Assembly (NCBI GenBank): GCA_902521465.1
Contig: CABYRL010000005.1
Coordinates: forward strand, 1 to 64,000
Reading direction: 5' to 3'
Length of the DNA stretch: 64,000 nucleotides
Source of the DNA: an uncultured Alphaproteobacteria bacterium
GTDB lineage: Bacteria; Pseudomonadota; Alphaproteobacteria; HIMB59
The position numbers and the translations under genes are program-made. The notes below the pieces were generated by a model, which saw only the letters and a program-made list of their open reading frames with translations, ran no database searches and had not been told where the DNA came from. Positions 22,478 to 49,990 of this stretch are shown one piece after another; the stretch's first letter is position 1, and every line of letters starts with the position of its first letter.

Positions 22478-22590
22478 GTAGAGGGTAGGAAACTTCCCAA
22501 AACAAAGAAAAGAGCCAAAGAAGTAGAGGCCTAGAGAAGGGAAACCGGAACTAAGTCGAGACAACAGAGGCTCTTTTCTGCTTTTTGTCT
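22478..22590 (+). ncRNA. Candidate structured small RNA with Rho-independent terminator
   Basis: GGGTAG-GAAA-CTTCCC hairpin, second GG-GAAA-CC hairpin, then AAAAGAGCC(22508-22516)...GGCTCTTTT(22569-22577) followed by CTGCTTTTTGT; no ORF. Confidence 0.45.
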
Positions 22591-23116: not shown

Positions 23117-23163
23117 TGGTGCCGCCGAGAAGAATTGAACTTCCGACCCCACCCTTACAAAGG
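23117..23163 (-). pseudogene. tRNA-Thr 3'-half remnant (displaced att copy)
   Basis: TGGTGCCGCCGAGAAGAATTGAACTTCCGACCCCACCCTTACaAAGG matches 27933-27979 of the intact tRNA-Thr with one mismatch, then diverges just past the anticodon loop. Confidence 0.9.
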
Positions 23164-23179
23164 ATATTATCAATGAAAA

Positions 23180-23253
23180 ATACACTGCAAAACAACAATT
23201 ATAAATTCAAAAATTACTAAATTTTGCTTTGCAGTGTACCCAAAAGTGTATCC
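23180..23253. repeat. Arm-like repeats next to the tRNA-Thr 3'-half remnant
   Basis: TACACTGCAAAACAA / TTTTGCTTTGCAGTGTA inverted repeat followed by AGTGTACCCAAAAGTGTATCC direct repeats. Confidence 0.6.
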
Positions 23254-23261
23254 AACAAAAT

Positions 23262-23447
23262 TTATTTTTTAATTGTCCATCCTTGTTTTTGTAGAGCTTT
23301 AATTAATATTTCTAATCTATCATCTCTGAACATTTCTGGTTTTATTTCAGTGAGAAAAATATTTTTTAAACCTGTGTCTTTCTCTCTTTGTCTAATATAG
23401 TCCTCTTTAGACTTAACCTTATAGATTTTAATTTCTTGTTTTGCCAT
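23262..23447 (-). CDS. Small hypothetical protein
   Basis: 61 aa from internal MAKQEIKIYKVK start with RBS (aggagaataacaATG); imperfect hairpin in the 5' leader (about 23472-23505). Confidence 0.55.
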   Translation of the reverse strand: MAKQEIKIYKVKSKEDYIRQREKDTGLKNIFLTEIKPEMFRDDRLEILIKALQKQGWTIKK

Positions 23448-23723
23448 TGTTATTCTCCTTTCGGTCAAACAAGGCAACTAAAATGGAAGGGACCGTTTTA
23501 GCTGCATTTATATAGCACTCGCAATAGGTTCAAATCAGTGCTTAAACAAAATTATAATTTAATCAAAATATTGTAAATACAAATTATATCTCTCATCTCA
23601 TAAGAGTATGGAATTCGCATCCTGAGTTATATTAGGTTCTTTATTGGATTAATTTATTAAATAAATGTATTTTTCATATGTTAAATTTTAATAACTAATA
23701 GATTCTAATATGTACAAAAAACT

Positions 23724-24911
23724 ATGAATTTCATTGATTTATTTTGTGGCTGTGGAGGTCTGACAGAAGGATTTATAAAAGAAAACTATAAACCTCTTCT
23801 TTTATCAGATAATGATCCATATAGTATGTTAACATCAGAAAATAGACTGACAAGTCTAGGCTTTAATAAAAGCTTAGTTGGAAAAATTTGTAAAAAAGCT
23901 GACTTAACAAATAAAAAAAATATACCTAATTTATTGTCTAATATCGATAATAAATTAGAAATAGATGTTTTAGTCGCTGGTATTCCTTGTCAAGCCTATT
24001 CTAGTGTAGGAAGAGCTCAAGATGCCGACTCCATGAAGAATGATAAAAGAAATTATCTCTACAAATCATTAATCAATTTTTTAAATATATTAAAACCAAA
24101 TATTGTTTTAATTGAAAATGTATCGGGTATGTTATCTGCAAGGCCCAAAGATGCCTTAATAATTAAAGATATTTTCAATCAATTAGAAAAATCTGGATAT
24201 AACGTTCATAGAGAGAAAAAAGATATTTTATTGAATTCTTTAGAATATGGAGTTCCCCAGGTAAGAAAAAGAGTTATTATTTTTGGTGTAAAAAAATCTC
24301 TAAGAATAAATCCCGTATATTTCTATGAAAAACTTCAGAAAACACATTATGAACCTAATAATAAGAAAAAAGGATTAAAAAAATTTATATCAGTTAATGA
24401 AGCTATAGGAGACTTACCTAAGATTAAGCCAGGAAAAGGTAAGGAGTTTTATGAATTTTTTAAACCAAAAATCAATAGATATTTGAAAGAAATTAGAAAA
24501 AAAGGTTACAGATATCTTCATAATCATACCTGTAGGTCTCACAATGAAAAAGACAAATTACGATATTTTTATTTATCTAAAAATAATTGGCAATTAAAAG
24601 ATTTACAGCATAAATATCCAGAATTAATTCACCATGATCCTAAACATTTTGGCAATAGGTATACAGTACAAGCAGGTCATCTTCCAGGCAGAACAGTAGT
24701 ATCTCATCTTTATAAAGATGGAAATTTATTCATTCACCCTGACTATAAACAAACTAGAACTTTTACAGTTCGAGAAGCAGCAAGGATTCAATCATTTCCT
24801 GACGATTTTATTTTTTCAGGATCTAGAACTCAACAGTTCAAACAAGTGGGAAATGCAGTACCTGTTTTACTTGCAAAGGCTTTAGCAAAAACTATTAAAA
24901 TTCTTAGATGA
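23724..24911 (+). CDS. DNA (cytosine-5-)-methyltransferase
   Basis: 395 aa; FIDLFCGCGGLTEGF, GIPCQAYSSVGRAQD, ENVSGM, YGVPQVRKRVIIFG, TVREAARIQSFPDDF, QVGNAVP. Confidence 0.96.
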   Translation: MNFIDLFCGCGGLTEGFIKENYKPLLLSDNDPYSMLTSENRLTSLGFNKSLVGKICKKADLTNKKNIPNLLSNIDNKLEIDVLVAGIPCQAYSSVGRAQDADSMKNDKRNYLYKSLINFLNILKPNIVLIENVSGMLSARPKDALIIKDIFNQLEKSGYNVHREKKDILLNSLEYGVPQVRKRVIIFGVKKSLRINPVYFYEKLQKTHYEPNNKKKGLKKFISVNEAIGDLPKIKPGKGKEFYEFFKPKINRYLKEIRKKGYRYLHNHTCRSHNEKDKLRYFYLSKNNWQLKDLQHKYPELIHHDPKHFGNRYTVQAGHLPGRTVVSHLYKDGNLFIHPDYKQTRTFTVREAARIQSFPDDFIFSGSRTQQFKQVGNAVPVLLAKALAKTIKILR

Positions 24912-26341
24912 TATTTTTTTCTATACCCTCAGTTAATCAACCGAAACCAGAATTATTATTTGGAAATGATGATCATTATGGATTTATTAAAACTTTAATA
25001 GGAGAGGAATATAAAAGAGAAAAAATAAAGCTCCTATGTAAAAAATATTACGATAAGCCAACAGATAAATATTGGGACCAAATAATTACTTATGCAAATT
25101 TTTTAGCTTTTAAAAAATTAAATGAAAAAAAACAATTTCAAGATATACCGATTCTCTCCCTGGTATCTGAGGAGTACGATAAAAATAATGATTTACCTGC
25201 TAAAATATTATTTGATTATTTTTTATGTCAGTGGCAGTACCCTCATCCTATAAATACAACTCAAAAAATTAAAGAAAAAGGTGTTGAATTATCAATAGAT
25301 GAACTTAGGCGTTTTCAAATATCTAAACCTTATAGTTCAATATTAAATATATTATTAAATTTATATATAAAAGATCCTAGTCAATCTTACTTATCAAATG
25401 ATGAATTTTATTGGTTAGGTTTAGAATTTTATAAAAGTAAGGGAGGTATTTTTCAAAAAAACAACATTCATAATTGTACAGATAAAATATTTAAAATAAG
25501 AAAATCAGGTGGGTGGAAAGGGTATAATGAGCTAGTAAATAAAGAAATACCTGTAAAAACTCATTTATCTTATCCTAAAGGCTTCTTGAGAAACTCTATT
25601 TTATTAAGTGATGAAAAAAATTTATATCCAAATATCAGTAATTTATTTATCGGCTTTAATTTATATGCCTCAAAAAATATAAAAATAGTGAAAAAAATAA
25701 TTTCTGAAACAGATAAGACAAAGTTTGAATGGGAAAGAAACAGAAATCCTCGGGATGATAGTCTTGTTTATGAATACTCTAATTATCTTTATTCTGCTGA
25801 AAGGATAAATAAATGGCTTTCAAATATTGACATTTATCCTCAACACAAAACTCTTTTTGATAACATACCTAATTTTGATAGAGAATTTGATGAGGAGGAA
25901 TACAAAAATTTAAGAATTGAAAGCCAATTAAAAAGAATTTCCGTATTAGATAAAGAGAGAATTACTAGATTTAGGACAGAGCAAAATTATTTAAGAACTT
26001 ATTTATTTTCAAACTCAGATCGAGGGACTTGTGCTATTTGTCATAATATTTACCCCGCAAAGTTTATGACATGTGCTCATATAAAGAAAAGAACTTTTTG
26101 CTCTGATATTGAAATGAGAGATAAAAATGTAGTAATGCCAGCATGTAATTTTGGCTGTGATAGTTTATTTGAAGAAGGGTATTTAATCGTTAAAGAGGGT
26201 ATAATTACAAATAATATTAAAGATAAGCTCATCACTAGTGATTTATCTTTGTATTTAGATAAAATAATTGGAAAAAGATGCTTATCTTGGAATCAAGACT
26301 CAAAAAAATACTTTAAATTCCATGAAAACAAACAAAAATAA
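24908..26341 (+). CDS. Putative type II restriction endonuclease with C-terminal HNH-like domain
   Basis: 477 aa; CAICHNIYPAKFMTCAHIKKRTFCSDIEMRDKNVVMPACNFGCDSLFEEGYL; sandwiched between two C5-MTases. Confidence 0.75.
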   Translation: MIFFSIPSVNQPKPELLFGNDDHYGFIKTLIGEEYKREKIKLLCKKYYDKPTDKYWDQIITYANFLAFKKLNEKKQFQDIPILSLVSEEYDKNNDLPAKILFDYFLCQWQYPHPINTTQKIKEKGVELSIDELRRFQISKPYSSILNILLNLYIKDPSQSYLSNDEFYWLGLEFYKSKGGIFQKNNIHNCTDKIFKIRKSGGWKGYNELVNKEIPVKTHLSYPKGFLRNSILLSDEKNLYPNISNLFIGFNLYASKNIKIVKKIISETDKTKFEWERNRNPRDDSLVYEYSNYLYSAERINKWLSNIDIYPQHKTLFDNIPNFDREFDEEEYKNLRIESQLKRISVLDKERITRFRTEQNYLRTYLFSNSDRGTCAICHNIYPAKFMTCAHIKKRTFCSDIEMRDKNVVMPACNFGCDSLFEEGYLIVKEGIITNNIKDKLITSDLSLYLDKIIGKRCLSWNQDSKKYFKFHENKQK

Positions 26342-27488
26342 TTTTATTGATTTATTTTGTGGGGCAGGAGGACTGTCACTTGGCTTTGAAAGAGCAGGCT
26401 ATGAGTGTGTTGGTGCAATTGATAATTCTAAGGCCTGTATAGATACACATAAATTAAATTTTCCTAATTGCATATCCATTAATTCTGATATTTCAGATAT
26501 TACACCAAAAAAATTCAGCGATATAATAAAAAATAAAAAAATTGATTTGATTGTTGGAGGGCCACCATGTCCTACTTTTTCAACAATAGGTCATGCAAAA
26601 ATAAAATCAATTAAAACTAAGAATAATTCAAGTTTTACATTATTTGATGATGAGAGAAATTTTTTATTTAAAAAGTATTTTGACTATATTGAATACTTCC
26701 AACCAAATTTTTTTGTTATGGAAAATGTTCCAAATTTTATGACAAAATATCAAGGCAGTATATTCAAACAAACCAAAAATAAAATTGAAGAATTAGGATA
26801 TCAAATTTTAAATGAAAATAATTTATTATTTAATGCTGCAGATTATGGTGTGCCTCAAACAAGAAAAAGAATGATAATAATAGGAACTAAACAAAAAGAC
26901 CTAAAATACCAAGTCCCGAAGATTAAAAATTTTCCTGATGATGATCTTTTTTCTAAAGGAAAAAAATATATCACTGTTAAAGATGCAATAGATGACTTGC
27001 CAAAAATAACTGATAATTGGAGAGTCGATGAATGTGCTTATTCAAAATCAAAAAATTTAAATAATTATCAAAAATTAATGAGAAAAAATACAAATGGAAC
27101 AGTGAAAAATAATATTTGTAGAATGACCAATGATAGGGCAAAAAAAGTTTTTAGACATATGAGCCAAGGAAGTAAATATATGGATTTACCAAAACAAATA
27201 AGAAATATTTTACCCTTTAGAGAGGATATTTTTCATGACCGTTTAAAAAGATTGGTAAATAACAAACCATCTTGGACAGTTATTGCACACATAGGTATGG
27301 ATGGTTATATGTACATTCATCCAACTGAAACAAGAACTCTGTCAGTAAGAGAGGCAGCAAGGCTACAATCATTTCCAGATGATTTTGTTTTTTTGGGAAC
27401 TCAGATGCAAACTTATCATCAAGTTGGTAATGCAGTCCCTGTAATTTTGGCTGAAGAAATAGCAAGATCAATAAAAAACACAGCTTAA
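26322..27488 (+). CDS. DNA (cytosine-5-)-methyltransferase
   Basis: NFIDLFCGAGGLSLGFERAG, GGPPCPTFSTIGHA, ENVPNF, YGVPQTRKRMIIIG, SVREAARLQSFPDDF, QVGNAVP; start at internal ATG (MKTNKNN) overlapping the upstream stop. Confidence 0.96.
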   Translation: MKTNKNNFIDLFCGAGGLSLGFERAGYECVGAIDNSKACIDTHKLNFPNCISINSDISDITPKKFSDIIKNKKIDLIVGGPPCPTFSTIGHAKIKSIKTKNNSSFTLFDDERNFLFKKYFDYIEYFQPNFFVMENVPNFMTKYQGSIFKQTKNKIEELGYQILNENNLLFNAADYGVPQTRKRMIIIGTKQKDLKYQVPKIKNFPDDDLFSKGKKYITVKDAIDDLPKITDNWRVDECAYSKSKNLNNYQKLMRKNTNGTVKNNICRMTNDRAKKVFRHMSQGSKYMDLPKQIRNILPFREDIFHDRLKRLVNNKPSWTVIAHIGMDGYMYIHPTETRTLSVREAARLQSFPDDFVFLGTQMQTYHQVGNAVPVILAEEIARSIKNTA

Positions 27489-27901
27489 TTTAAAAACTTA
27501 CTAATAATTTTTTTATATCTGCTGTCCTCATGTATTTTAATTACTTCATTTATTATTAGTATCTCGAGGCACTCCTCTAACATTTCATTACTAGGTTCTT
27601 TACCAAAAATTTTGACAAAATATTTTTCTCTTATTACCCTTCTTAATTCTTCTAATGGGCAGTATTCGCACCACATTTTATCTTTCATTACTTCGATATT
27701 TAATTTTGATTGAAAAATACTCATTTCACCAAATTTCTGCAAAATAGTTTTTAATTCCTCGTCACTTATATAAGCTAAGTTTTTGATTTTATAATCGAAG
27801 ACCTCTTTTAGTCCTTCATATTTGTATATATCGTGTAGATAGCCAAGTAAGTGATCATAATAATTATATTTCCATTCTTCATATTCAAATAATTTCATCA
27901 T
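27485..27901 (-). CDS. Hypothetical protein
   Basis: 138 aa, convergent with the second MTase, no family recognised. Confidence 0.5.
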   Translation of the reverse strand: MMKLFEYEEWKYNYYDHLLGYLHDIYKYEGLKEVFDYKIKNLAYISDEELKTILQKFGEMSIFQSKLNIEVMKDKMWCEYCPLEELRRVIREKYFVKIFGKEPSNEMLEECLEILIINEVIKIHEDSRYKKIISKFLN

Positions 27902-27932
27902 TTACTATATTTAATTAAAATCTTTTATAATT

Positions 27933-28007
27933 TGGTGCCGCCGAGAAGAATTGAACTTCCGACCCCACCCTTACCAAGGGTGTGCTCTACCACTGAGCTA
28001 CGGCGGC
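27933..28007 (-). tRNA. tRNA-Thr(GGT)
   Basis: rc GCCGCCGTAGCTCAGTGGTAGAGCACACCCTTGGTAAGGGTGGGGTCGGAAGTTCAATTCTTCTCGGCGGCACCA; anticodon loop TTGGTAA; cloverleaf stems and encoded CCA. Confidence 0.97.
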
Positions 28008-28015
28008 ATAACTTA

Positions 28016-28044
28016 TATTTATAGGGATATTTAATAACTCTCAA
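28016..28044 (-). promoter_or_regulatory. Putative promoter for the intact tRNA-Thr
   Basis: TTGAGA (28044-28039) - 17 nt - TAAATA (28021-28016) just upstream of the tRNA 5' end. Confidence 0.5.
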
Positions 28045-28060
28045 GTATTAGATTTTATGA

Positions 28061-28079
28061 AGTGTGCTTAATGTGTGCA
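28061..28079 (+). repeat. Arm-like direct repeat, left end of second Thr insertion
   Basis: AGTGTGCTTAATGTGTGCA. Confidence 0.55.
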
Positions 28080-28080
28080 T

Positions 28081-28527
28081 TTAACTTAAATGGTCTTTGT
28101 AATTTTCAATGTCAGGGTCAAAAGCTCCAAAAGTCAAAAAATTAGCAAATCTGATTGTTCTTAACATTGTTATTTCTGAAAATAATAGATATGCATTACA
28201 GCATATAAATAAAAAAATTATTCCGAACCAAATGAATAAGAGTGCTAAAACATTTACAACAAAAAATAATAAAAAAATTAAAGTTCCAAAAATAAAATGA
28301 TCCTCAAAGATTTGATATATTCTCATGGCGAAATAAAATTCATATTTAAAAATTAGAATTAAATAAGGCTCAATTAAGATATAAAGTTTCCCACTTAATA
28401 AAAAATACCAAAAACCCAATGATATAACTATAGTATATAAAAAAGGAATTAAAAAAAACAAATCAGTTTTTTTTAAATCCCAATACTTATTAATAAATTT
28501 AAAAATATTTAATTTTAATTTGTCCAT
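28081..28527 (-). CDS. Membrane protein, unknown function
   Basis: 148 aa, multiple hydrophobic segments. Confidence 0.55.
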   Translation of the reverse strand: MDKLKLNIFKFINKYWDLKKTDLFFLIPFLYTIVISLGFWYFLLSGKLYILIEPYLILIFKYEFYFAMRIYQIFEDHFIFGTLIFLLFFVVNVLALLFIWFGIIFLFICCNAYLLFSEITMLRTIRFANFLTFGAFDPDIENYKDHLS

Positions 28528-28748
28528 ATTTTACGGATTTTTTTATATATTAAAAACCATATAGAAAGAAATATTACTGATAATATTATTATTTCCTCAT
28601 AGTTTATTCCCCAACTATATAAATGTTCTAAAAAATCAATAAGGGGAGCTCCAATAAAATTGGGCAAGTAAGGAGAAATAAAAACTATAAATAATAAAAT
28701 AATATTTGTTAGAACATATGAAGATACAATAGATAAGAAGATTTTCAT
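28515..28748 (-). CDS. Small membrane protein
   Basis: 77 aa, hydrophobic; overlaps the start of the downstream ORF (operon-like). Confidence 0.5.
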   Translation of the reverse strand: MKIFLSIVSSYVLTNIILLFIVFISPYLPNFIGAPLIDFLEHLYSWGINYEEIIILSVIFLSIWFLIYKKIRKIWTN

Positions 28749-28936
28749 TTCTTTTTATTTTTTTCTCTTCTCCACAGTATGAAAAATAACAATATCAAAG
28801 CTGGTTGTAAAATTACAAAGATTACAATATTAGCTAGTTCATAGCCCATTCCAGTTAAATCGCCTATTACTTCTAAAACCCAGACACACCATTGAAAGAA
28901 ATCATTAATCATTACAAACTCTCACTAAGAGGGTTT

Positions 28937-29242
28937 TCATTTTATACAGTTTGATTTAACTCTCTGAGAACTATTAATGAAATTTTGAGATGGAGTTTGA
29001 TATTTTTGTTGATAAGACATTTCTTTTTCATCAAGTAAATTCATCATAGATCTAATATAACATTCACAAAATGTATTATAATTTCCAATGGTCATCTTGC
29101 TTGCATTAAATTGTTGTTTGTCATTTTTACATTGTTTTATTCCATAATTGATTTGGTCTTCAGTTATAACTGTCTTTGCAATAGAGATATTGGTCGAACT
29201 CAAACTAGGGATTAATAACAATAGTGCTAAGAGTGTTTTCAT
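28937..29242 (-). CDS. Secreted small hypothetical protein
   Basis: 101 aa with signal peptide; conserved-looking Cys pattern. Confidence 0.5.
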   Translation of the reverse strand: MKTLLALLLLIPSLSSTNISIAKTVITEDQINYGIKQCKNDKQQFNASKMTIGNYNTFCECYIRSMMNLLDEKEMSYQQKYQTPSQNFINSSQRVKSNCIK

Positions 29243-29279
29243 ATGAAGTTAAGTCTAATTAAAGATTAATTTTCAGCCA

Positions 29280-29338
29280 ACCAAAATGTGCAGAAAATGA
29301 GCGAAAATTTCTGAAACTTAATGCACACTTTGGTTTGG
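29280..29338. repeat. Inverted arm-like repeat, right end of second Thr insertion
   Basis: GCCAACCAAAATGTGCA ... TGCACACTTTGGTTTGGC (imperfect inverted repeat). Confidence 0.6.
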
Positions 29339-29398
29339 CATTACCCAAAAGAACAAGTTTTTGTCGATTTTTGTTCATTATGGTAAGAAAGTACTCTA

Positions 29399-29436
29399 TT
29401 ACCAAGGGTGTGCTCTACCACTGAGCTACGGCGGCA
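29399..29436 (-). pseudogene. tRNA-Thr 5'-half remnant (displaced att copy)
   Basis: TTACCAAGGGTGTGCTCTACCACTGAGCTACGGCGGCA identical to 27971-28008 of the intact tRNA-Thr. Confidence 0.93.
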
Positions 29437-29455
29437 TTTTTAAAATTATAGACTA

Positions 29456-45936: not shown

Positions 45937-45953
45937 GGGGCGTTCTGTTGCCC
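45937..45953 (+). repeat. tmRNA-3'-end direct repeat, core A
   Basis: GGGGCGTTCTGTTGCCC, identical to the tmRNA 3' end copy E. Confidence 0.9.
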
Positions 45954-46029
45954 ACAATAGATAATCTAAACTGAAATATTCAGTAATATCAACATTAATA
46001 TATTTACAAATTACAAAAAAATACACTTT

Positions 46030-46049
46030 AGTGTGTCAATAATGTGTCA
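46030..46049 (+). repeat. Arm-like repeat (gamma), left end of module 1
   Basis: AGTGTGTCAATAATGTGTCA. Confidence 0.65.
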
Positions 46050-46098
46050 TAATAATATTGAATTTAAAATACTCTATAAATCTGATTAAATAATATTT

Positions 46099-47040
46099 AT
46101 GGTTTCAAGGTTAACTAAACAAAAAATTAGAGACATTTGGAAAACTGAGGACAAAGAATTTACACCATGGTTAGTTCAGAATATAGCCTTACTTAATGAG
46201 GACCTTGGTTTAAATATTCAAGATCCTGAGAGTGAGAAAAAATTAGATACCTTTAAAGTTGATATTGTGGCCGAGGATGATCAAGGAAAAGTTGTAATTG
46301 AAAATCAATTTGAAAAATCTGATCATGATCATTTAGGTAAATTATTGACTTATATAAGCAATGTAGAAAATACTAAAAAGGCAATATGGATAGTAGAGGA
46401 TGCTAAACCTGAGCATCACAGAGCAATAGAGTGGCTGAATGCTAACATTAAGACTTGTTTATTCTTTTTAGTAAAAATTCAAGTTTTCAAAATAAAAGAT
46501 AGTGAACCTGGGGCTCAATTTTTTTTATTATCAGGACCAGATGAAAATATTACGACTGTTGGTAAAATAAAAGAAGAGGACTCAGAAAGAGAGAAAATTA
46601 AACATAATTTTTGGTCCCTATTTTATGAAAGACTGAAAGATAAAAGTAGTATTTATGATAACACTTCACCAAAAGGAAGAAACTACATGAGCATCAGTGC
46701 AGGAATTAGAGGAGTAGGCTTTAATGTTGCAGCGATGAATAATTCTGCACAGGTTGAAATTTACATTGATCGGGGAAAGGATGAAGGAAAAGAGGTAAAT
46801 TTAAAAATATTTAATGAATTGGAAAAACAAAAAGCAGAAATTGAAAAAAATTTTGGTAACAAATTAGAGTGGGAAAGACTTGATGGCTCAAGGGCATGCA
46901 GGATAAAATTTAAATCTGATATTGGAGGTTTTAAGGACCCTGATACTTGGGATCGTGTTCATGAATTTTTAGTAGATAATTTAATTAAACTTGAGAATTC
47001 ATTTAAAAAGCATGTTACTGGCTTGAATAAATTTTTATAA
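46099..47040 (+). CDS. DUF4268/PD-(D/E)XK nuclease-like protein
   Basis: 313 aa; FKVDIVAEDDQGKVVIENQFEKSDHDHLGKLLTYIS. Confidence 0.7.
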   Translation: MVSRLTKQKIRDIWKTEDKEFTPWLVQNIALLNEDLGLNIQDPESEKKLDTFKVDIVAEDDQGKVVIENQFEKSDHDHLGKLLTYISNVENTKKAIWIVEDAKPEHHRAIEWLNANIKTCLFFLVKIQVFKIKDSEPGAQFFLLSGPDENITTVGKIKEEDSEREKIKHNFWSLFYERLKDKSSIYDNTSPKGRNYMSISAGIRGVGFNVAAMNNSAQVEIYIDRGKDEGKEVNLKIFNELEKQKAEIEKNFGNKLEWERLDGSRACRIKFKSDIGGFKDPDTWDRVHEFLVDNLIKLENSFKKHVTGLNKFL

Positions 47041-47051
47041 AAATAATTCTC

Positions 47052-47071
47052 AGTGTGTCATAGCTGTGTCA
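47052..47071 (+). repeat. Arm-like repeat (gamma), right end of module 1
   Basis: AGTGTGTCATAGCTGTGTCA. Confidence 0.65.
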
Positions 47072-47129
47072 AACAACTTGTTTGTTTCTAAAAAGAGTTG
47101 ATAGTTTTTGTTAAAAGGAAGTTTAGAGA

Positions 47130-47146
47130 GGGGCGCTCTGTTTCCT
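47130..47146 (+). repeat. tmRNA-3'-end direct repeat, core B
   Basis: GGGGCGCTCTGTTTCCT. Confidence 0.85.
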
Positions 47147-47189
47147 AACTAAATTGCCCTAAGTCGCAGTATATAACAACTTTTTAAAA

Positions 47190-47211
47190 CTGTATGCATA
47201 AACTGTATGCA
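47190..47211 (+). repeat. Arm-like repeat (beta), left end of module 2
   Basis: CTGTATGCATAAACTGTATGCA. Confidence 0.65.
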
Positions 47212-47234
47212 CTAATTTCTCGTTTTTGACGAAT

Positions 47235-47264
47235 TTGCGACTTCTGTTTTTAATAAAGTATACA
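47235..47264 (+). promoter_or_regulatory. Putative module-borne promoter
   Basis: TTGCGA - 18 nt - TATACA, in sequence conserved with module 3 left end. Confidence 0.4.
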
Positions 47265-47295
47265 AATAGGTCTGAATAAATGTTAAAGTTAATTT

Positions 47296-47811
47296 ATGAT
47301 AAAAATTATTTTTTCATTCTTACTTGTATTTTCTTTTAATTCCTTTGCTTTAGATATTAGTTCTCCAGCATTTAATGACGGTGATAATATTCCTAAAAAA
47401 TATGGATGTAAGTATAATGGAGGTAATAATATATCTATACCATTAGAGTTTTCAGATATTCCAGACGATGCAAAATCTCTTGCACTAATTATTGATGACC
47501 CTGATGCAATGAGTGTTGCTGGTAAAATATGGGTGCATTGGATTTTAGTAGATATACCAACAAATACAAAAGAACTCAAAGAAGTTAAAGATGGAAAATT
47601 AGGTATCGGAAAAACTGGAAGAAATAGTAATGGTAGTAAAAATTATGGTGGACCCTGCCCACCCAACGGAGTTCATGTTTATAATATAAAAGTTTATGCC
47701 TTAAACATTGAAATAAACAAAAGTTTAGGCGAAATGACACAAAAAAAATTCGAAAAAAAATATAAGAATGAAATTATTAGTTCATCTATGATTTCAGGAA
47801 AATATAAATAA
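47296..47811 (+). CDS. YbhB/YbcL (PEBP/Raf kinase inhibitor-like) secreted protein
   Basis: 171 aa; signal peptide; SPAFNDGDNIPKKYGC, IIDDPDA, WVHWILVDIP, YGGPCPPNGVHVYNIKVYAL. Confidence 0.92.
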   Translation: MIKIIFSFLLVFSFNSFALDISSPAFNDGDNIPKKYGCKYNGGNNISIPLEFSDIPDDAKSLALIIDDPDAMSVAGKIWVHWILVDIPTNTKELKEVKDGKLGIGKTGRNSNGSKNYGGPCPPNGVHVYNIKVYALNIEINKSLGEMTQKKFEKKYKNEIISSSMISGKYK

Positions 47812-47865
47812 TCTCTTCTTACTAAATTCCTTCTCTTTGATTCATCGCCTAGAATGAAATTTCAA

Positions 47866-47898
47866 AGTGTCTGCTAAGTGTCTGCTAAAGTGTCTGCT
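47866..47898 (+). repeat. Arm-like repeat (alpha) x3, right end of module 2
   Basis: AGTGTCTGCTAAGTGTCTGCTAAAGTGTCTGCT. Confidence 0.7.
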
Positions 47899-47945
47899 CT
47901 TTAAAAATAAAAAAGTAAGAAGAAATAAAGGTTATTTAATTAAAA

Positions 47946-47962
47946 GGGGCGTTCTGTTTCCT
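47946..47962 (+). repeat. tmRNA-3'-end direct repeat, core C
   Basis: GGGGCGTTCTGTTTCCT. Confidence 0.88.
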
Positions 47963-48004
47963 AACACATCGTCCCTAAGTCGCACTATACAATGATTTTA
48001 TAAT

Positions 48005-48014
48005 AGTGTCTGCT
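48005..48014 (+). repeat. Arm-like repeat (alpha), left end of module 3
   Basis: AGTGTCTGCT. Confidence 0.55.
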
Positions 48015-48037
48015 CTGATTTCTTGTTTTTGACGAAT

Positions 48038-48065
48038 TTGCGACTTCTGTTCGCAAAAGTATACA
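48038..48065 (+). promoter_or_regulatory. Putative module-borne promoter
   Basis: TTGCGA - 16 nt - TATACA; same context as the module 2 promoter. Confidence 0.4.
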
Positions 48066-48088
48066 AATAAGATTTTGTTTATGTTAAG

Positions 48089-48616
48089 TTGAAACATTTG
48101 AAAAGCAATTTAGAGAAACTTTCTGTAGAAGAATTAGTACAATTATTATCTCCTTCATCTGATGTAGTAAAAGAACTCTACAAAAGAAATGTTCTAAGAA
48201 CTAAAAATACTGTAGGAGAATTAGGCGAATATTTTGCAATTAAATTTTACAATAAGATCGATAAAAATAAATATGAAGTTAGTAAAAAATTACCCAATTT
48301 AACATTAGCAGGGGAGACAACTAAAAATGTTGATGCTCTTAGTAGGGAAGGGAAAATCTACAGTATAAAGTGTATTTCATCCGCCCCTAGTACTACTGGA
48401 TCTTTTTGGGATCCCGAGTCTATAAAATCAAATAAAAAAACTTTTGATTTTTTAGTAATTGTCGTACTAGATGACACATGGAATGTTGATAGAATACTCG
48501 AATTATCATGGGAAGATTTTTTTGAAAATAAAATGTTTAATAAGAGAATGAATAACTTCAATATAAGAGTAACAAAAAAACTGATGAAGAAATTTACAAT
48601 AATTTCTAAGAAATAG
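48089..48616 (+). CDS. Putative PD-(D/E)XK nuclease-like protein
   Basis: 175 aa; GELGEYFAIKFYN ... NVDALSREGKIYSIKCISS; TTG start. Confidence 0.6.
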   Translation: MKHLKSNLEKLSVEELVQLLSPSSDVVKELYKRNVLRTKNTVGELGEYFAIKFYNKIDKNKYEVSKKLPNLTLAGETTKNVDALSREGKIYSIKCISSAPSTTGSFWDPESIKSNKKTFDFLVIVVLDDTWNVDRILELSWEDFFENKMFNKRMNNFNIRVTKKLMKKFTIISKK

Positions 48617-48658
48617 TTTAAAGTGGCAAAATTGTCTTGGTTGAGTTAATTTTGTCAA

Positions 48659-49390
48659 ATGAAAAATAGGTTCACTAGAAAAAGTAGAACGGAAAGAAGT
48701 CACATCCCAAAAAATTTCAAAAAAGAAATTTTTGAAAGAGATAGATATATTTGTATTTATTGTAAAAAAAATTTGGATAATAAAAATGAAAAACCAACTT
48801 TGGATCATTTAATACCTATATCTAATCATTCTGGACTTAATGAAAAAACTAATTTTGTGACATCTTGTTTGAGTTGTAATCAAAAAAAAGCAAGTATTCC
48901 TATTAAGGAATTTGCAAAAAATATTAATATAGATTTAAAAGACTTACCAATAACTGGAGATTTAATAATTGATAATACTGATTTACCTAAGCAAATTAGG
49001 CAGATAAGAAAAGAATTATTTGAAAAAATAAGAAATGAAGAATTATTAATTGGAGGTAGAAAATCTCAAAAAAAAATTGAAAAAAAATATAGAGAAAATT
49101 TAACCAATTCTAAATTAGGTCAAGATCTTAAAAATAAATTTCCAACATTACCTGGTCCAGTTAGAACGATGATACCAGAAATAGAAACTATTGTTTCTAA
49201 TAAAAATGATTTTAATTTATTAGTTGAACTTGCAAAATCTGCAAATACAAGAAATCTTATAGGAACTATTATAACAAAAAATTGTAATGTAATGGATACG
49301 TTAATCAATATTACCAAAAAAAGTAATGATAAGTCTTTGGTCAAAAGAATTAATTTTGCAATTGCAAGATTCAAAAAAATACAAAGTTAA
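48659..49390 (+). CDS. HNH endonuclease
   Basis: 243 aa; RDRYICIYCKKNL...PTLDHLIPISNHSGLNEKTNFVTSCLSCNQKK. Confidence 0.88.
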   Translation: MKNRFTRKSRTERSHIPKNFKKEIFERDRYICIYCKKNLDNKNEKPTLDHLIPISNHSGLNEKTNFVTSCLSCNQKKASIPIKEFAKNINIDLKDLPITGDLIIDNTDLPKQIRQIRKELFEKIRNEELLIGGRKSQKKIEKKYRENLTNSKLGQDLKNKFPTLPGPVRTMIPEIETIVSNKNDFNLLVELAKSANTRNLIGTIITKNCNVMDTLINITKKSNDKSLVKRINFAIARFKKIQS

Positions 49391-49448
49391 TTAAAATATA
49401 AAGATATTTCTATTCTAATTGATTCATCGCCTAGAATGAAACTTTAGA

Positions 49449-49480
49449 CTGTATGCAAACTGTATGCAAAACTGTATGCA
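49449..49480 (+). repeat. Arm-like repeat (beta) x3, right end of module 3
   Basis: CTGTATGCAAACTGTATGCAAAACTGTATGCA. Confidence 0.7.
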
Positions 49481-49527
49481 ACTTGTTTTTCAAAAAGTGA
49501 GAGGAAATAATAACTTTTAATTAAAAA

Positions 49528-49544
49528 GGGGCGTTCTGTTGCCC
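49528..49544 (+). repeat. tmRNA-3'-end direct repeat, core D
   Basis: GGGGCGTTCTGTTGCCC, identical to cores A and E. Confidence 0.9.
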
Positions 49545-49771
49545 GATAAACTATTTTGTTTTTTTCAACAAATATATATTTAAACCAATAGATATAAAAA
49601 TTATTAACAAAACAACTATTAGTATCAGTACATTTATTCCTGTATAACCTAGTCCAGTTTTATCACCTAAATAAATTAGTAAATCTACAGTACTATCAAA
49701 AATCCAATCTACCCAATCAATTCCACTATTAGCAACTGACTCGTAAATTCCTTTCTTGCTCATAATTTAAG
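49545..49771. mobile_element. ssrA-array module 4 (miniature, one small membrane ORF)
   Basis: Between cores D and E; no obvious arm repeats. Confidence 0.5.
49551..49763 (-). CDS. Small membrane protein
   Basis: 70 aa; C-terminal TM helix; start codon about 8 bp past the tmRNA 3'-end hairpin on the same strand. Confidence 0.55.
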   Translation of the reverse strand: MSKKGIYESVANSGIDWVDWIFDSTVDLLIYLGDKTGLGYTGINVLILIVVLLIIFISIGLNIYLLKKTK

Positions 49772-49990
49772 GGGGCGTTCTGTTGCCCGGCCGCCCCAAA
49801 GCCGCGCTTACCTAATTAGATTAAGCAGCGAGTGCTAATTCATTATCGTTAGCAATTATTTTAAGTTTCTATGTCGAAGAAACGCTTACAACGAGCAAAA
49901 ACTGTATCCTTCAGAGCACGTCAAACCTATATCACCCCCTCTAAATTTTATGGTGGAGGTGTCGGGTACCGCCCCCGAGTCCGATACACC
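49772..49990 (-). ncRNA. ssrA: Two-piece (circularly permuted) tmRNA
   Basis: Tag ORF rc 49821-49853 = GCTAACGATAATGAATTAGCACTCGCTGCTTAA (ANDNELALAA*); acceptor piece ...CACCTCCACCA ending at 49951 precedes the coding piece beginning GGGGGTG at 49939; GGGGGTG pairs with CACCTCC. Confidence 0.93.

What the first reader, a model, noticed from the sequence alone, without database searches (positions are those of the whole stretch)
23180..29338. Arm-like repeats and inverted repeats also at the tRNA-Thr insertions, again without integrase
Second insertion: AGTGTGCTTAATGTGTGCA at 28061 and ATGTGCA/TGCACAC in an imperfect inverted repeat at 29280-29338. First insertion: TACACTGCAAAACAA/TTTTGCTTTGCAGTGTA inverted repeat and AGTGTACCCAAAAGTGTATCC at 23180-23253. 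The style (paired GTGT-starting octamers 20-110 bp from the core) matches the ssrA array. This suggests the same class of trans-mobilised elements uses two different RNA-gene anchors in one genome region.
Basis: partly seen in the sequence, partly recalled or inferred. Interest (0 to 1): 0.7.

Follow-up and report, generated by a model that had tools for sequence, protein, structure and literature searches.

The report
Gene cassettes borrowing phage integration sites
In a streamlined ocean bacterium (order HIMB59), small gene cassettes sit inside a transfer-RNA gene without an integration enzyme of their own; the ends of one of them match the integration site of marine phages that do carry such an enzyme, so the cassettes probably move by borrowing it.

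Summary
tRNA-Thr(GGT) (27933-28007) is flanked by a displaced 3' half (23117-23163) and a displaced 5' half (29399-29437). Both breakpoints lie in the 7-nt anticodon loop (TTACCAA), and the named repeats are present. Relatives carry at least 27 such insertions (0.2-6.3 kb) at this gene, plus empty sites. Paired 10-12 bp direct repeats are enriched at their ends (24/51 termini at p<0.05, against 3/84 controls). Neither window insertion has an integrase.

The main result is a candidate source of the enzyme. The right end of insertion 2 (29278-29398) matches a 121-bp phage attP arm, 115/121 identical. It occurs in 19 viral contigs, next to a 376-380 aa tyrosine integrase wherever that stretch is held. 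No homolog was detected in 162 genomes of the host order. One phage differs from three others over 1000 bp only by inversion of the 7-bp overlap, matching the two insertion polarities. Four phage records carry a whole tRNA-Thr(GGT), as in tRNA-dependent lysogeny.

A second arm family also matches phages. Insertion 1 has a third family (GTGTACCC); its cognate integrase lies in a relative's element at the same tRNA, with relics in others. So trans-mobilisation is likely, but by several integrases, and mobilisation itself is inferred.

The parts
27933..28007 (-). Intact tRNA-Thr(GGT), the attachment gene (attB); the only GGT copy among the 30 tRNA loci checked in the genome
   Evidence: ARAGORN; whole-genome DNA search; isotype list
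27971..27977 (-). 7-bp overlap TTACCAA (anticodon loop UUGGUAA), the crossover region
   Evidence: 3'-half copies mostly end at or beyond query 47 and 5'-half copies start at about 41 in relatives; three-base core inversion between otherwise identical phages
23117..23163 (-). Displaced 3' half of tRNA-Thr, left boundary of insertion 1 (overlap here reads TTACAAA, one mismatch)
   Evidence: left flank 87-91% identical to relatives
29399..29437 (-). Displaced 5' half of tRNA-Thr, right boundary of insertion 2
   Evidence: 100% copy; right flank 95% identical to the empty site L051
23164..27930 (.). Insertion 1 (3'-type, 4.8 kb): two cytosine-5 DNA methyltransferases and an unassigned 477 aa protein between them
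   Evidence: PF00145 at 4.5e-62 and 1.1e-73; none for the 477 aa protein
23181..23238 (.). Inverted repeat in the left end of insertion 1
   Evidence: block 23165-23480 conserved at ~96% in L036 and L041
23233..23255 (+). Arm-type direct repeat pair AGTGTACCCAA/AGTGTATCCAA, 12 bp period
   Evidence: p=0.028 here; same pair at both ends of L036, L041 and of the integrase-bearing element L037
23262..23477 (-). 71 aa ORF next to the arms, conserved in L036 and L041 (candidate directionality factor, by position only)
28010..29398 (.). Insertion 2 (5'-type, 1.4 kb); carries its own 5' half of tRNA-Thr and the upstream DNA of that gene
28061..28079 (+). Arm pair AGTGTGC/TGTGTGC in the left end of insertion 2 (P side)
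   Evidence: p=0.024; shared TAATGTGTGCATT with the other end not significant alone (p=0.11)
29278..29398 (-). 121-bp P' arm block shared with phage attP sites, including GTGTGCATTAAG and CTGCACATTTTGG
28937..29242 (-). 101 aa probably secreted protein with the leader MKTLLALLLLIPSL; the 46-bp leader DNA recurs in other cassettes

Best explanation
The two insertions are site-specifically integrated gene cassettes (hitcher elements) without a recombinase. Each joins one half of tRNA-Thr, split at the 7-bp anticodon-loop overlap, to the arm-binding DNA of an integrase attachment site. A tyrosine integrase supplied in trans recombines the cassette's att site with the anticodon loop of tRNA-Thr. 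For insertion 2 the supplier is a temperate or transiently integrating phage; for insertion 1's family it was a self-integrating element like the one in L037. The half-gene carried by the cassette rebuilds the tRNA, so insertion is harmless and can repeat as tandem arrays on either side. A 3'-type cassette carries the 3' half and a 5'-type carries the 5' half with its upstream DNA; which half depends on the orientation of the overlap, which is seen to flip in the phages. Cargo includes polysaccharide lyases, hydrolases and restriction genes. SHOWN: breakpoints, empty sites, arm identity with phage attP, the phage integrase next to that attP, no detected integrase in the cassettes, overlap inversion between phages. 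INFERRED: that the phage enzyme acts on the cassettes, and that cassettes travel between cells (route unknown; possibly in phage particles).
For: Halves and overlap. Empty sites L050 and L051 with 84-96% identical flanks. Arms enriched at termini, 24/51 against 3/84. Insertion 2's end in 19 viral contigs. Shared block begins at the core and ends after 121 bp, with 2-5/17 matches beyond. Phage integrase directly upstream of attP in 17 of 19 contigs, the other two being cut short there, PF00589 2.8e-18 and phrog_1. No homolog detected in 52 genus and 162 order genomes; the PF00589 search, which would recognise it, found 1-4 hits per genus genome, mostly Xer-like. Host arms match particular phage arm subtypes (window 79/80 with L129, L042 80/80 with L124, but down to 52-57/80 with other phages) and the two phage arms co-vary (GTACAT/GTACAT, GCACAT/GCACAT, GGACAT/GGACAT). 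L120 differs from L119, L126 and L130 over 1000 bp only at ACC/GGT in the overlap. Second phage arm family. Integrase-bearing element with insertion 1's arms at the same tRNA.
Against: No excised circle, transfer or particle was observed. No lysogen of the P0002 phages was found. Insertion 1 lacks arms at its right end, so it may no longer move. Arm matches between the two ends of one element are significant in only 8 of 23 elements, and a permutation across elements is not significant (p=0.15). In the second phage family the overlap in the phage is not TTACCAA. The genome is 92% complete, so an integrase in a gap cannot be excluded. HIMB59 as host of the phages is inferred, not shown.
Confidence: 0.72

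Rival explanations
1. The insertions are immobile remains of elements that once carried an integrase (decayed prophages or islands, CIME-like): the integrase was deleted, the att ends and cargo stayed.
For: Integrase N-terminal relics next to the same arms in L036 and L020; insertion 1 has arms at one end only; PMC3146451 describes ssrA islands lacking an integration module that may be cis-mobilizable.
Against: Insertion 2 has no recognised phage gene or integrase relic. Phage attP has no tRNA half, so a deleted phage would leave a broken tRNA, which is not seen. Host arms match several different phage subtypes at up to 79-80 of 80 bases, which suggests recent, repeated use.
Confidence: 0.2
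2. Homologous recombination between tRNA copies on incoming DNA, without a site-specific recombinase.
For: tRNA halves give 39-50 bp of identity; PMC10734472 proposes homologous exchange for other HIMB59 islands.
Against: Breakpoints repeat at the same 7 bases in both polarities, and are joined on the element side to phage attP DNA that starts exactly at the core.
Confidence: 0.04
3. The host Xer recombinases integrate the elements.
For: Xer-like proteins are the only tyrosine recombinase hits in many of these genomes.
Against: Xer uses no arm-binding sites (own knowledge), whereas ends here carry arm pairs; phages with the same att encode their own integrase. A dif-like site was not searched for.
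Confidence: 0.03
4. The repeats are chance features of AT-rich DNA.
For: Each window repeat alone is only p about 0.025.
Against: Enrichment over termini, and 115/121 identity with phage attP.
Confidence: 0.01

Closest known systems
CIME (cis-mobilizable elements) and integrase-less ssrA islands of Dehalococcoides (PMC3146451)
   Same: Flanked by att copies at an RNA gene, tandem arrays, no recombination genes
   Different: Here the ends match phage attP arms rather than those of a neighbouring ICE/IME; both tRNA halves are used; cassettes are mostly ~1-5 kb with one or a few genes
tRNA-dependent lysogeny phages (PMC10865867)
   Same: Tyrosine integrase, very short common core inside a host tRNA gene, complete phage tRNA of the same isotype
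   Different: Described in actinobacteriophages; here marine viral contigs, and host cassettes share their arm sites
Phage satellites: PICI, PICMI, VEIME, tycheposons (PMC11389934, PMC10803314)
   Same: Dependent on phage functions; some marine; tRNA sites for tycheposons (own knowledge)
   Different: No integrase or other satellite hallmark gene was recognised in the cassettes; packaging not shown
CALIN integron cassette arrays and MITEs (PMC11389934)
   Same: Recombinase supplied in trans; CALINs also carry cargo cassettes
   Different: No integron integrase recognised; att sites are tRNA core plus arm sites, not attC or transposon ends
T7-like cyanophages integrating transiently at tRNA-Leu (PMC8776855)
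   Same: Marine phage integrase plus attP acting at a host tRNA during mostly lytic infection
   Different: No cassettes exploiting it were reported in the passages read

Membership tests
CIME / cis-mobilizable element | Flanked by att sites, no integrase | tested here: met
CIME / cis-mobilizable element | Derived from and mobilised by a neighbouring ICE/IME (accretion) | tested here: not met
   No integrase-bearing element next to them in the window; insertion 2's end matches phages
Phage satellite | Uses a helper phage function | tested here: inconclusive
   Arm sites shared with the phage and its integrase adjacent; action not shown
Phage satellite | Packaged into helper particles | not testable with these tools
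   no particle data
Tycheposon | Hallmark tyrosine recombinase in the element (from own knowledge) | tested here: not met
Integron/CALIN | attC sites | not tested
   No attC scan was run; breakpoints are in the tRNA anticodon loop
tRNA-dependent lysogeny (the phages) | Tyrosine integrase beside attP | tested here: met
tRNA-dependent lysogeny (the phages) | Common core too short to rebuild the tRNA | tested here: met
   7 bp, no tRNA half in attP
tRNA-dependent lysogeny (the phages) | Phage tRNA of the same isotype | tested here: inconclusive
   tRNA-Thr(GGT) in 4 of 12 records, all 4 tRNAs found being that one; records are fragments
tRNA-dependent lysogeny (the phages) | Phage tRNA required for lysogeny | not testable with these tools
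   experiment needed

The most novel reading that the evidence does not exclude
A general cassette system of streamlined marine bacteria: small cassettes with phage-type arm sites plus either half of an RNA gene, stacking in tandem at several RNA genes and moved by whatever phage integrase matches their arms, so that infecting phages act as the shared recombinase of the population.
Probability: 0.45. Interest if true: 0.88.

Novelty: new variant of a known kind. Interest (0 to 1): 0.78.

Why it matters
It offers a concrete route by which genome-reduced ocean bacteria, with few mobile-element genes, could gain and lose genes such as polysaccharide lyases and restriction systems: they use the integrases of their phages. 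It gives testable helper-cassette pairs with near-identical arm sites, a marine candidate for tRNA-dependent lysogeny, and a natural 7-bp overlap inversion that shows where strand exchange happens. The polarity (5'-type versus 3'-type) has a simple explanation.

Tried and rejected
Exact tRNA 5'-half search in viral contigs: 4 hits, all containing at least most of a tRNA-Thr; the two whose reading frames I listed are unrelated phages. Exact 3'-half: none. L037 integrase in viral contigs: no relative; in phage records only distant relatives at about 28-32% identity in the rows shown. TTGACACA arm, insertion 1 arm and ssrA-array end in viral contigs: none. Cross-end arm permutation over elements: not significant, reported as inconclusive because related families inflate the background. 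A Xer-driven mechanism was rejected on the presence of arm sites and phage integrases.
Full report
WHAT IS THERE. The window is contig C5 of a 1.34 Mb alphaproteobacterial genome. Relatives reached by a fragment of the same element are single-cell genomes such as AG-916-M14, which PMC10734472 names as an HIMB59 reference genome; I therefore place the host in HIMB59. tRNA-Thr(GGT) lies at 27933-28007 on the minus strand. A copy of its 3' half (23117-23163) and one of its 5' half (29399-29437) lie on either side.

COMPARISON WITH RELATIVES. The 79-bp tRNA query found extra partial copies in about 20 of 52 genomes of the genus, up to four in one genome. Twenty loci were fetched. 3'-half copies mostly end at or beyond query position 47 and 5'-half copies begin at about 41. 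The overlap is TTACCAA, the anticodon loop. Genomes G018 and G029 (L051, L050) have one intact tRNA and the same flanks without insertions. I count at least 27 insertions of 189-6299 bp, the window's two included. So the window shows two site-specific insertions in opposite polarity.

ARMS. A test for direct repeats of 9-15 bp period in the 150 bp next to each breakpoint gave p<0.05 at 24 of 51 termini and p<0.01 at 14, against 3 and 1 of 84 control stretches from flanks. The repeat sequence differs between elements (GTGTACCC, TTGACACA, TGTGTATC, TCCAATTT, TTATGCA and others) but the period is mostly 10-12 bp. That is the layout of arm-type sites of tyrosine integrases (own knowledge; PMC10865867 mentions arm-type sites flanking phage att cores).

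INSERTION 2 AND ITS PHAGES. A 23-base string from the right end of insertion 2 was found in 19 viral contigs. In every contig it lies beside TTACCAA or TTGGTAA. An alignment shows that phages and host cassettes share the 7-bp core and the following ~121 bp, and nothing on either side: the other side is a tRNA half in hosts and GACCTATCA or a close variant in phages. The window shares 115/121 with L117, L128 and L131, and only 2-5 of the next 17 bases with any contig. A 376-380 aa tyrosine integrase ends about 120 bp upstream of the core; it was found in 17 contigs, and the remaining two are cut short at that point. No host genome in the genus (52) or order (162) gave a match to it. The PF00589 profile, which recognises this protein, was searched in the 52 genus genomes and found mostly Xer-like proteins, with a single integrase at tRNA-Thr, in L037. 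The contigs carry an endolysin-like protein, an Erf-like annealing protein, a terminase small subunit and a repressor-like protein. The closest cultured relative by DNA is Pelagibacter phage HTVC115P.

ARM SUBTYPES AND POLARITY. Phage arms come in subtypes, and left and right arms of one phage agree (GTACAT, GCACAT, GGACAT). Window insertion 2 matches L129 at 79 of 80 arm-block positions, and host L042 matches L124 at 80 of 80, while the least similar phages fall to 52-57. L120 and L119, L126, L130 are identical over 1000 bp except ACC versus GGT in the centre of the core. Because TT and AA are complementary ends, this is an inversion of exactly the 7-bp overlap. It fits strand exchange in either orientation with the symmetrical anticodon stem, and explains why cassettes occur as 3'-type and 5'-type. 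The inversion is observed; this explanation is inference.

PHAGE tRNA. The phage attP contains neither tRNA half, so phage integration would split the only GGT tRNA found among the loci checked. Four of twelve phage records hold a tRNA, and all four are complete tRNA-Thr(GGT), with anticodon stems different from the host's. This is what PMC10865867 calls tRNA-dependent lysogeny. No lysogen was seen, so the phage may integrate rarely, as described for T7-like cyanophages (PMC8776855).

SECOND PHAGE FAMILY AND INSERTION 1. Host elements in L032, L035 and L044 share ~170 bp with attP-like regions of phages L139-L141, again up to the core, beside a 388 aa integrase that is 34% identical to the first. 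Those phages have a different overlap sequence. Insertion 1 belongs to a third family: 23165-23480 is ~96% identical in L036 and L041. An element with the same GTGTACCC arms at both ends and its own 324 aa integrase sits at the same tRNA in L037. L036 and L020 keep only the first codons of such an integrase. In the window the right end of insertion 1 lacks the arms, so it may be immobile. Hence trans-mobilisation involves several integrase families, and loss of integrase is part of the history.

OTHER ANCHORS AND CARGO. In the same genome tRNA-Arg(ACG) has a 5'-half copy 1.2 kb upstream, bounding a one-gene cassette with a polysaccharide lyase. Cargo at tRNA-Thr in relatives includes polysaccharide lyases (PF14099), alginate lyase (PF05426), hydrolases, restriction enzymes, a UvrD-type helicase and an acyltransferase. 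Many cargo genes share a leader peptide and its DNA.

WHAT IS NOT SHOWN. No excision, transfer or packaging was observed. The matching of arms implies but does not prove that phage integrase acts on cassettes. That HIMB59 is the phages' host is inferred. The ssrA array was not linked to any phage.

Noticed in passing
G000:C1:109000-113500 (L173; L167 228-1501): Third RNA anchor in the same genome: 5' half of tRNA-Arg(ACG) duplicated 1.2 kb upstream of the intact gene, flanking a polysaccharide-lyase cassette with ACCCGGTA/GCCGGTAC repeats at both ends.
   Followed up: partly
window 29197-29242 and many element ORFs: A 46-bp leader (MKTLLALLLLIPSL) is 78-96% identical in DNA between otherwise different cargo genes at several tRNA anchors, including loci with integrases near tRNA-Arg(TCT).
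   Followed up: partly
L119, L120, L126, L130: Phage pairs identical over 1000 bp except for inversion of the 7-bp att overlap.
   Followed up: yes
L116, L117, L118, L127 contigs (tRNAs in L135-L138): Complete tRNA-Thr(GGT) genes in the phages that share att sites with the cassettes; a marine candidate for tRNA-dependent lysogeny.
   Followed up: partly
window 22480-22580: GC-richer stretch with a terminal inverted repeat (AAAGAGCC..GGCTCTTT), part of it conserved upstream of the tRNA in L050; possible small RNA; no Rfam match at gathering cut-off.
   Followed up: no
window 23492-23526: Short motif CTAAAATGGAAGGGACCGTTTTAG in insertion 1; the 35-bp stretch recurs at 94-97% in L099 and in the loci of integrase-bearing contigs L096 and L097.
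   Followed up: no
L110, L111: Host-assigned contigs carrying the same phage arm block at places that are not tRNA-Thr halves; L111 seems to have another tRNA half beside it.
   Followed up: no
L088, L089 (G051, G003): Elements at duplicated tRNA-Gly(GCC) with integrases related to L037's, both matching with one in-frame stop.
   Followed up: no
window 45937-49787: ssrA array: 3 extra copies of GGGGCGTTCTGTT[GT]CC; 7 other genomes of the genus have 2 copies and one has 3.
   Followed up: partly
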